Origin: Nitrospirota bacterium
GTDB taxonomy: Bacteria; Nitrospirota; Nitrospiria; Nitrospirales; Nitrospiraceae
Direction of reading: 5' to 3'
Length of the DNA stretch: 58,916 bases
Assembly: GCA_022545705.1 (NCBI GenBank)
Contig: JACZQN010000002.1
Coordinates: 1-58,916, forward strand
Shown: in pieces, positions 35,887 through 50,460 of the stretch
How the letters are laid out: each line of letters opens with the position of its first letter
How positions within the stretch are numbered: the first letter of the stretch is position 1
The notes under the pieces: model-generated
Database searches by the model: none
What the model was told of the DNA's origin: nothing
Seen by the model: the letters and a program-made list of their open reading frames with translations, nothing else
Translations under genes and position numbers: made by a program

Positions 35887-36516
35887 TCAGGATGCAGCCA
35901 GCGCATCGAGGAATTGACGCGTGACGAATTCAACCGACGGCGCGGAGAGGATCGCGGAGATCACCGCAACACCAAAGGCGCCGGACTGTCGCACTTCGCG
36001 AACCCGTGGGACCGTCACGCCGCCGATTGCGAAGACCGGGATTCGGCAGCGTCGGCTCGCGTCTTCGATCGGTCGCAGCCCGATCGGTTCCCCGAAGCCG
36101 CGTTTCGAGGCTGTCTCGTACACCGGCCCGAGCACCACGAAATCGGCGCCGTTGGCCTCGGCGTGGAACACTTCCTCCACGGTATGCGCCGACACACCGA
36201 TCACCCGATCCGGGCCGAGAATCCGTCGAGTCACCGCGACCGGTATGCTGCTGGCGCGCAGGTGCACACCATCGCCTCCGGCCGCCATGGCCAGATCGAG
36301 GCGATCGTTGACCAACAATAAAGCTCTGTGTTCGCGCGTGATGCGGAGCACCTCCTCAGCCAGACCGAGCAAGGCGCGGGTATCGAGATCCTTTTCCCTC
36401 AACTGGACCGCTCGCACGCCAGCCTCCACCGCTACCCGAATGAGCGATACCAGGGGCCGGCCGCGGGTCTGATGGCGATCAGAAACTAAATACAGGGGAA
36501 AGTCAACGCGGGGCAT
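35887..36516 (-). CDS. thiE: Thiamine-phosphate synthase
   Basis: A 209-aa TIM-barrel enzyme. AVQLREKDLDTRALL, LLVNDRLDLAMAAGGDGVHLR and VIGVSAHTVEEVFHAEANGADFVVLGPV are the ThiE substrate-binding segments, and FAIGGVTVPRVREVRQSGAFGVAVISAI closes the barrel. It joins the pyrimidine and thiazole units into thiamine phosphate. It follows thiG by about 30 bases. The C-terminus is slightly shorter than in E. coli ThiE but complete. Confidence 0.93.
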   Translation of the reverse strand: MPRVDFPLYLVSDRHQTRGRPLVSLIRVAVEAGVRAVQLREKDLDTRALLGLAEEVLRITREHRALLLVNDRLDLAMAAGGDGVHLRASSIPVAVTRRILGPDRVIGVSAHTVEEVFHAEANGADFVVLGPVYETASKRGFGEPIGLRPIEDASRRCRIPVFAIGGVTVPRVREVRQSGAFGVAVISAILSAPSVEFVTRQFLDALAAS

Positions 36517-36543: not shown

Positions 36544-37317
36544 TCAGAGAAATCCCTCGATCGGACTACTGGCAGTCGCGTAGAGTTTCCTGGGAATCCG
36601 CCCCGCCTTGTACGCCAACCGGCCAGCATGCACGGCGCACTTCATCGCCTCAGCCATTGCAATCGGGTCTCCCGCGCCGGCGATCGCGGTATTCATCAGC
36701 ACCGCGTCACAGCCATATTCCATCGCGAGCACTGCGTCTGAAGGGGTCCCCACCCCTGCGTCCACAATGACTGGCACCTTGACCATTTCGAGAATGATTT
36801 TGAGGTTGTATGGATTCCGAATCCCCAGACCAGACCCGATCGGCGCAGCCAACGGCATGATCGCTGGGCATCCAACATCAACGAGCTTCTGGGCCACGAT
36901 AGGGTCATCGTTGGTATAGGGCAGTACGATAAACCCCTCCTTCACTAGCACCTTGGCGGCCTCGACCAACCCAACCGTGTCCGGGAACAGCGTCCGCTCA
37001 TCACCAATAACCTCGAGCTTCACCATATCGGACACGCCTGCTGCGCGGGCAAGCCTGGCGTACCGTAACGCGTCCTCCACGGTATAGCAGCCGGCCGTGT
37101 TCGGAAGGATCGTGTACCGCTTGGGGTCCAGATAATCGAGCAGGTTCTCTTTGGACCGGTCCGTGATGTTCACCCGGCGGACCGCCACCGTGACGACATC
37201 GGCTCCGGACGCCTCGATGGCCTTTTGCGTTTCGATGAAGTCTTTATATTTTCCCGTCCCGACCCACAGCCGCGATGTGAACTCGCGTCCTGCGATAGTT
37301 AGTCGATCATCTTGCAT
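36544..37317 (-). CDS. thiG: Thiazole synthase
   Basis: A 257-aa TIM-barrel protein. [19 protein letters not shown] starts the fold, [17 protein letters not shown] holds the Schiff-base Lys, and [29 protein letters not shown] binds phosphate. ThiG takes sulfur from ThiS thiocarboxylate and builds the thiazole of thiamine. ATG 37317 matches homologues; GTG 37326 would add three residues. Neither has a clear ribosome-binding site, because an octamer repeat element lies immediately upstream and separates it from thiS. Confidence 0.93.
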
Positions 37318-37334
37318 GACAGGCACCCATGGAA

Positions 37335-37504
37335 GAATTGACTCATTGAGTCATGTGATCATTGATGCATTGACTCATTGCTTGTCGCACTGAAATGAAA
37401 CAGTCCCTCAGTGATTCCGCGTAAGAATGGATTCATTGAATGATTGATTCATTGCATGATTTCTTTGAAATGAGCCAATGACTCAATGCATCAATGATCC
37501 AATT
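37335..37504. repeat. 170-base octamer inverted-repeat element (ATTGNNTC word), copy 2
   Basis: The left array reads ATTGACTC, ATTGAGTC, ATGTGATC, ATTGATGC, ATTGACTC from 37337 in exact eight-base steps. The right end mirrors it: 37357-37380 and the reverse complement of 37476-37499 agree at 23 of 24 bases. Both outer ends begin GAATTG followed by TCATTGA two bases later. It separates thiS from thiG and supplies the last codons and stop of thiS. A shorter relative lies at 11762-11846. Confidence 0.8.
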
Positions 37505-37721
37505 CCTCCGCCCCTCCCCCGACGAAATTGATGATCTCGATGTGATCGCCCTCACACAATGCGCGCCGATCGAACTCTTGACGGTCGAGGATCTCCAGGT
37601 TGATCTCGACAGCTACACGGTCCGGGCCGACTTCCAGTTGGCGCAGCAGGTCCGCCACGGTGCCACCAGCACCCACGCTACGCGACTCTCCATTGACCTG
37701 GATCTGCATAGCTCGTACCAT
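37491..37721 (-). CDS. thiS: Sulfur carrier protein ThiS with a C-terminal tail
   Basis: A beta-grasp (ubiquitin-fold) protein of about 76 aa. ATG 37721 has AGGA seven bases upstream; ATG 37709 (MQIQVNGESRSVG) is the usual homologous start. GTVADLLRQL and RVAVEINLEILDRQEF are ThiS motifs, and the C-terminus DHIEIINFVGGG is where ThiS normally ends so that ThiF can activate the terminal Gly. Here six residues, AEELDH, follow, encoded by the end of the octamer repeat. Either the tail is trimmed by a protease or this ThiS cannot be charged. It precedes thiG in the same transcript. Confidence 0.88.
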   Translation of the reverse strand: MVRAMQIQVNGESRSVGAGGTVADLLRQLEVGPDRVAVEINLEILDRQEFDRRALCEGDHIEIINFVGGGAEELDH

Positions 37722-45468: not shown

Positions 45469-45480
45469 TGTCAGACTCAA

Positions 45481-45561
45481 GGTAAAAGGGCAAAGGTAAA
45501 AGGTAAAAGTGAATTGCGACAACGCTCCAGTTTTTTACTTTTGCCTTTTTACTTTTTACTT
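45481..45561. repeat. Heptamer array pair (GGTAAAA / TTTTTAC word)
   Basis: The left array is GGTAAAA, GGGCAAA, GGTAAAA, GGTAAAA (45481-45508). The right array is TTTTTAC, TTTTGCC, TTTTTAC, TTTTTAC (45532-45559). Both have an exact seven-base period, the arms are inverted, and 23 bases separate them. The right arm contains the rpsP stop and its last Lys codons. A close relative sits at 50360-50455. Confidence 0.8.
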
Positions 45562-50230: not shown

Positions 50231-50359
50231 AAGACCGTCTCCTCGCACAAGCACGAAATTCCTCCCCGGAGGAGCAGGAATGTGCTACCTGCATGCTCTC
50301 CGAATCGCTGCGCTGTATAGCACACCGCTCCCCCGGGCGCAATCACTGCCGCCCGCGAA

Positions 50360-50455
50360 GGTAAAAGGTCAAAGGGCAAAAGTAAAAAGGCAAAAAAACT
50401 GTTCCCTCCACACTTTTACCTTTTACCTTTGCCCTTTTACCTTTGCCCTTTTGCC
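50360..50455. repeat. Heptamer array pair (GGTAAAA word), second copy
   Basis: The left array has GGTAAAA, GGTCAAA, GGGCAAA, AGTAAAA, AGGCAAA (50360-50394). The right array has TTTTACC, TTTTACC, TTTGCCC, TTTTACC, TTTGCCC, TTTTGCC (50414-50455). The arms are inverted, in exact seven-base steps, 19 bases apart. It lies between the divergent uvrD-like and 282-aa genes, just upstream of the latter's promoter. Confidence 0.8.
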
Positions 50456-50460
50456 TTACT

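What the first reader, a model, noticed from the sequence alone, without database searches (positions are those of the whole stretch)
37491..37721. ThiS has six residues after its essential terminal glycines
ThiS must end in Gly-Gly for adenylation. Here GGG is followed by AEELDH then a stop, all encoded by the octamer element. Either a protease removes the tail (as JAMM proteases do for QbsE or CysO-type carriers), or this ThiS is inactive, or ThiG is fed by another carrier.
Basis: partly seen in the sequence, partly recalled or inferred. Interest (0 to 1): 0.55.

Follow-up and report, generated by a model that had tools for sequence, protein, structure and literature searches.

The report
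Thiamin sulfur carrier with removable tail
In Nitrospira-family bacteria the small sulfur-carrying protein for vitamin B1 synthesis is made with a useless, ever-changing tail after its working end, which a ubiquitin-protease-like enzyme encoded in the same genomes most likely trims off.

Summary
In detail: on the minus strand at 37721..37491 thiS encodes GGG-AEELDH-stop. It is no sequencing error and not a dead gene. In the same order, 53 of 53 relatives' thiG-linked ThiS that I read also carry a tail. In a named family set 79 of 80 closed genes do (1-40 residues, 58 distinct endings); the glycines are invariant (80 of 80) and the core is under purifying selection (median dN/dS 0.11). The genome encodes a JAMM protease with an intact motif beside a ThiF, and three other carriers with residues after Gly-Gly. 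Most likely ThiS is a capped precursor matured by this JAMM, as known for QbsE-type carriers; with the end released from selection, the stop codon drifts. In the window it lies in the foot of a dispersed palindromic octamer element; in 27 of 80 relatives thiS appears to overlap thiG. Cleavage itself is untested, JAMM is not linked to thiSG, and a JAMM-tail association test elsewhere in the phylum was not significant (35/76 versus 2/9). I rate it a new variant of a known kind.

The parts
37491..37721 (-). thiS, 76 aa, sulfur carrier of thiazole synthesis, ending GGG-AEELDH-stop
   Evidence: PF02597 5e-14 and TIGR01683 6.9e-21 over residues 7-70
37512..37520 (-). codons of the GGG that must become the free C terminus; invariant in 80 of 80 family genes
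37494..37511 (-). tail codons AEELDH; predicted unstructured with the GGG (pLDDT about 50)
37331..37509 (.). palindromic element of imperfect octamers (ATTGANTC type) between thiS and thiG; its 5' arm covers the thiS tail and stop codon
   Evidence: 44 matches in the genome against 1 for the reversed control
36544..37326 (-). thiG, thiazole synthase, the acceptor of ThiS sulfur
   Evidence: PF05690 7.4e-114
35887..36516 (-). thiE-like gene downstream of thiG (thiamin phosphate synthase; name from its sequence, not searched)
   Evidence: name recalled

Best explanation
The protein is translated as a capped precursor. The JAMM/MPN+ metalloprotease encoded beside a ThiF gene elsewhere in the genome cuts after the third glycine and releases AEELDH; the new C-terminal glycine is then adenylated by ThiF and converted to the thiocarboxylate that feeds ThiG. 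Because anything after GGG is removed, the 3' end of thiS is free of selection and the stop codon drifts: it can sit inside a palindromic repeat (window), be used to overlap the thiG start (about a third of relatives), or lie one codon on. Shown by sequence: tail, its lability, the constraint on the core and GGG, the JAMM gene with intact motif, other capped carriers in the genome. Inferred: cleavage by this JAMM, its site, and ThiF activation of the product.
For: Tails in 53 of 53 relatives of the order read and 79 of 80 closed family genes, 58 distinct endings of 0-40 residues, GGG 80 of 80, core dN/dS 0.11 over 402 pairs; for example, cores 97% identical end in V versus APVDVQGKGRGFVHAE. 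JAMM with E..HxHx7SxxD overlapping a ThiF end (PF14464 6.7e-24); strong JAMM (E <= 1e-6) in 56 of 61 order genomes. Other carriers of the genome also have residues after GG: ThiS2 GGGQ, TtuB-like SGG+11, MoaD fused to MoaE. TtuB-like tails vary in the same way (22 of 30 with, 8 without). In-frame ThiS2-CysM fusions in 3 genomes and ThiS-ThiG fusions in 2, all with JAMM. Precedents read in passages: capped carriers and JAMM PtmS1 (PMC6006322); JAMM cutting MoaD-MoaE (PMC8832034).
Against: No cleavage was tested. JAMM is not in the thiSG locus; in relatives it sits with ThiS2/CysM/ThiF/ThrC/MoaD/NIL/ThiF. In the rest of the phylum, JAMM-positive genomes often have no ThiS tail (41 of 76), and 2 of 9 JAMM-negative ones do (G131, G135), Fisher p 0.29. 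Three order genomes with tails lack a strong JAMM hit (G007, G017, G033), though their ThiS2, which neighbours JAMM, is also missing, as in an assembly gap. Two alphaproteobacterial ThiS-ThiG fusions come from hosts whose JAMM status I could not check. Tails are shorter than alternate reading frames (median 7.5 versus 17.5) and 91% of 57 distinct tails start with a small residue, so they are not wholly unconstrained; relatedness was not corrected for.
Confidence: 0.72

Rival explanations
1. Another peptidase (a carboxypeptidase or general trimming) removes the tail, and JAMM serves only ThiS2, TtuB and MoaD-MoaE.
For: Some tailed genomes lack a JAMM hit: G131 and G135 outside the order and three in it. 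Tails differ wholly in sequence, so a sequence-blind activity suffices.
Against: ThiS2-CysM and ThiS-ThiG fusions need an endopeptidase at GG. JAMM is near universal in the order (56 of 61).
Confidence: 0.13
2. ThiS is inactive or dispensable and thiazole comes from the Thi4-type synthase next to thiC.
For: A sulfide-dependent Thi4 is encoded at C22 (TIGR00292 2.9e-72) and in 55 of 61 order genomes.
Against: ThiS core under purifying selection, GGG 80 of 80; thiG kept next to it. N. defluvii THI4 had little or no detectable activity in an E. coli thiG mutant (PMC8454699, passages read).
Confidence: 0.07
3. ThiG is fed by the second, CysO/HcyS-like carrier ThiS2, and ThiS1 has another role.
For: Both carriers match the ThiS equivalog model; one JAMM/ThiF system may serve both.
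Against: ThiS1, not ThiS2, is adjacent to thiG; ThiS2 is next to or fused with cysM. ThiS2 is itself capped.
Confidence: 0.05
4. The tail has a function of its own (degron, regulatory cap or partner binding).
For: Only 1 of 80 family genes has no tail, and the first tail residue is small in 91% of distinct tails, as if a minimal cap were preferred.
Against: Tail length and sequence are not conserved; in 101 of 286 close pairs (core identity above 85%) the lengths differ; other families of the phylum often have no tail.
Confidence: 0.03

Closest known systems
Capped sulfur-carrier proteins with JAMM protease (QbsE/QbsD, PtmS2-PtmS3/PtmS1)
   Different: Those serve specialised metabolites; here the carrier is thiG-linked thiamin ThiS, the cap is up to 40 residues and hypervariable, and JAMM is not in the locus
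CysO/HcyS-type carriers with cysteine or homocysteine synthesis (recalled; operon classes 4c-4e of PMC1779556)
   Same: ThiS2 of this genome is of this kind (cysM neighbour, one-residue cap)
   Different: The finding concerns ThiS1, not ThiS2
MoaD-MoaE fusion cut by DRJAMM in Deinococcus radiodurans
   Same: JAMM frees a C-terminal glycine of a carrier with a C-terminal extension (PMC8832034); a MoaD-MoaE fusion is also in this genome
   Different: Molybdopterin, not thiamin; the extension there is a functional domain
Canonical ThiS (E. coli 1f0z, B. subtilis 1tyg, Thermus 2cu3)
   Same: Same family and core (organism names recalled)
   Different: Those chains end at the glycines; no tail

Membership tests
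ThiS (sulfur carrier of thiazole synthesis) | beta-grasp ThiS domain | tested here: met
   PF02597 and TIGR01683; core predicted with good confidence
ThiS (sulfur carrier of thiazole synthesis) | adjacent thiG | tested here: met
   thiG 36544-37326 minus strand
ThiS (sulfur carrier of thiazole synthesis) | encoded C terminus is Gly-Gly | tested here: not met
   six more residues; met only if the tail is removed
Capped, JAMM-processed sulfur carriers | residues after GG | tested here: met
   79 of 80 family genes
Capped, JAMM-processed sulfur carriers | JAMM protease encoded in the genome, with intact metal motif | tested here: met
   C61, HSHPRSPAFPSSTD with upstream ECCGLL
Capped, JAMM-processed sulfur carriers | JAMM gene clustered with the capped carrier | tested here: not met
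   no JAMM near thiS-thiG; in relatives JAMM clusters with ThiS2, about 5 kb apart
Capped, JAMM-processed sulfur carriers | cleavage after GG by the JAMM | not testable with these tools
   needs protein assay
JAMM/MPN+ proteases | E, H-x-H-x7-S-x2-D | tested here: met
   read in the sequence; motif definition recalled; nearest solved chain 2kks (2.1e-18)

The most novel reading that the evidence does not exclude
In Nitrospirales one JAMM protease is a shared maturation gate for most sulfur carriers of the cell (thiamin, cysteine, tRNA thiolation, molybdopterin), so that sulfur transfer as a whole depends on proteolysis, and carrier 3' ends have become neutral DNA that tolerates repeat insertion and gene overlap.
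Probability: 0.35. Interest if true: 0.65.

Novelty: new variant of a known kind. Interest (0 to 1): 0.45.

Why it matters
Iyer et al. [quoted passage not shown] A whole order, including cultured nitrite oxidisers, seems to need such a protease to make its thiamin ThiS usable, which is directly testable. It also warns that C-terminal residues of annotated ThiS proteins in these genomes are probably not part of the mature protein, and shows how a protein end freed from selection is filled by repeats and overlapping genes.

Tried and rejected
Sequencing or assembly error: rejected, since tails occur in 53 of 53 relatives of the order read and in the complete genomes of Candidatus Nitrospira defluvii (GGGAR, L149) and N. 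moscoviensis (20-residue tail, L172).

Pseudogene: rejected by dN/dS and invariant GGG.

JAMM presence as a predictor of tails in the rest of the phylum: not significant (35 of 76 versus 2 of 9, p 0.29; thiG-linked only 33 of 72 versus 2 of 6, p 0.69). Four of the 89 loci were left out as ThiS2-type. The test had few JAMM-negative genomes and no correction for relatedness; a wider search for JAMM in the JAMM-negative genomes gave weak matches only, some probably RadC-type (my reading).

Exactly one capping residue as a rule: it holds for ThiS2 in 16 of 16 rows, in the own genome and in 6 of 7 clusters (the seventh is a CysM fusion; two genomes occur in both calls), but G084 has two. The cause may simply be overlap of the ThiS2 stop with the cysM start.

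ThrC-linked MoaD as a tail-free control: only 2 of 7 end at GG, 5 of 7 have one residue more, so it is no clean control.

Literature searches for capped thiamin ThiS or ThiS-ThiG fusions found no description in their listings; terms spelled ThiS also match the word 'this', and most subscription papers are not held.

Full report
WHAT IS THERE. On the minus strand, 37721 to 37491, lies a 76-residue ORF ending GGG-AEELDH-stop; thiG (37326-36544) and a thiE-like gene (36516-35887) follow on the same strand. Pfam ThiS and the NCBIfam ThiS equivalog match residues 7-70, stopping at GGG. AlphaFold on an alignment of 20 sequences folds the core confidently (most blocks at 88-93) and gives the last residues about 50 pLDDT, with 69-71 below 50. 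The window is contig C62 of a 2.17-Mb, 144-contig assembly. Its family contains Nitrospira: contig length 4,317,083 of relative G029 equals that of Candidatus Nitrospira defluvii FP929003.1.

RELATIVES. In 61 genomes (own plus 60) I read the thiG-type ThiS of 53 relatives (29, 24): 53 of 53 have at least one residue after GGG. In the named-genome scan (best 80 of 261 confirmed), 80 of 81 genes (79 of 80 loci plus window) are closed; 79 of those 80 have tails of 1-40 residues and one (L180) stops after GGG. The two sets share genomes. There are 58 distinct endings. GGG is invariant (80 of 80), the position after it has entropy 2.0 bits and the next 3.0, and median dN/dS of the core is 0.11 over 402 unsaturated pairs. 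Of 286 pairs with cores above 85% identical, 101 differ in tail length. The tail therefore changes freely while the protein does not. Two features are not neutral: tails are shorter than the other two frames would give (median 7.5 versus 17.5), and 91% of 57 distinct tails begin with A, S, T, G or C. Neither was corrected for relatedness.

OUTSIDE THE FAMILY. Twelve thiS genes that I picked from the 60 plasmid rows listed (of 78 records): 10 stop at the glycines, 2 (Tistrella, Sphingomonas) are ThiS-ThiG fusions. ThiS chains in the PDB from E. coli, B. subtilis and Thermus (organisms recalled) end at the glycines. In 85 genomes of other families of the class and phylum, 37 have a tail or fusion and 48 none.

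THE PROTEASE AND THE OTHER CARRIERS. The genome has one clear JAMM (C61:7877-8296, E 9.7e-24) with the motif E...HSHPRSPAFPSSTD, overlapping the C-terminal end of a ThiF at a contig edge. In 56 of 61 order genomes a JAMM passes E 1e-6. In relatives with unbroken clusters, read gene by gene in three genomes, the order is ThiS2, CysM, ThiF, ThrC-like, MoaD-like, NIL-like, ThiF, JAMM (G029), with the same main genes in G019 and G039 (some names recalled from sequence). In the own assembly the ThiS2-cysM start (C92) and the ThiF-JAMM end (C61) lie at contig edges, so the middle is probably a gap. All other recognised carriers of the own assembly have something after GG: ThiS2 GGGQ, a TtuB-like protein SGG-ELSADSSQLDA beside a TtuA-like gene, and MoaD fused to MoaE. 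TtuB-like tails in 30 loci read (of 54 genomes with a match) are present in 22 and absent in 8. ThiS2 is fused in frame to CysM in G039, G070 and G078, and ThiS to ThiG in G121 and G162; all five have strong JAMM hits.

WHY THE STOP CODON IS WHERE IT IS. The 197 nt from the codon after GGG to the aligned thiG start fold into a long hairpin (MFE -66.6, z -5.7 against 100 mononucleotide shuffles), and its 5' arm includes the tail codons and stop. The element is made of imperfect ATTGANTC-type octamers; the pattern occurs 44 times in the genome (at most one mismatch) against once for the reversed control, and several of the 12 other copies looked at fold likewise, some beginning GAAGAATTG next to a possible stop codon. 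Tails of the same form (AEELRH twice, TEELSH, SEELIQ, SEELND) occur in five named relatives with related octamer sequence, though only one of these five spacers (L123) has a comparably strong fold (z -6.8; the rest -0.7 to -2.9), so the element, or its edge, has long been there. In 27 of 80 relatives with thiG placed, the thiS stop overlaps the thiG start (start placed by alignment, approximate).

MECHANISM. The most economical reading is a capped precursor: JAMM cuts after GGG, ThiF activates the new end, ThiG takes the sulfur. Capped carriers needing a JAMM are known (PtmS2/PtmS3 with PtmS1, and QbsD as described there; PMC6006322, passages), as is JAMM cutting MoaD-MoaE (PMC8832034, passages). 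New here is the thiamin ThiS as client, order-wide, with a neutral tail. Iyer et al. predicted that JAB may free ThiS or MoaD from fusions but noted no JAB in thiamin operons (PMC1779556, passages); consistent with that, JAMM here is encoded elsewhere.

AGAINST. Nothing shows cleavage. Elsewhere in the phylum 41 of 76 JAMM-positive genomes have no tail and 2 of 9 JAMM-negative ones do (p 0.29); JAMM thus permits but does not require tails, and G131 and G135 are exceptions unless their assemblies lack the gene. In the order, G007, G017 and G033 have tails without a strong JAMM hit; their ThiS2 is missing too, which suggests gaps. A Thi4 in 55 of 61 genomes could make thiazole without ThiS, but N. 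defluvii THI4 was listed with little to no detectable activity in an E. coli thiG mutant (PMC8454699, passages).

VERDICT. Observation confirmed; the protease option is best supported (0.72). New variant of a known kind; interest 0.45.

Noticed in passing
window 37331-37509; copies e.g. L351, L355, L357, L359: Dispersed palindromic element of ATTGANTC octamers with an edge like GAAGAATTG, several copies close to a possible stop codon; 44 pattern matches genome-wide. Possibly a REP- or MITE-like element or a terminator.
   Followed up: partly
window 45479-45561 and 50358-50457: Facing heptamer arrays (AAGGTAA / TTTTTAC; AAGGCAA / CTTTTAC), apparently a second palindromic repeat family.
   Followed up: no
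L093, L095, L096: Cluster ThiS2-CysM-ThiF-ThrC-like-MoaD-NIL-ThiF-JAMM: a threonine-synthase-like enzyme with its own sulfur carrier suggests a protein-thiocarboxylate route to an amino acid such as homocysteine (inference).
   Followed up: partly
L271, L278 (G121, G162); L338 Sphingomonas; L337 Tistrella: In-frame ThiS-ThiG fusions, in two of them with a single residue between GGG and the ThiG Met.
   Followed up: partly
L095 (G039), L268 (G070), L302 (G078): In-frame fusions of the CysO-like carrier to cysteine synthase.
   Followed up: partly
G000:C22 (L050): Thi4-type sulfide-dependent thiazole synthase beside thiC, co-occurring with thiS-thiG in the order (55 of 61 genomes have Thi4): apparent redundancy of thiazole synthesis.
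   Followed up: partly
G000:C99 (L001): MoaD-MoaE fusion downstream of moaC, a further candidate JAMM client.
   Followed up: no
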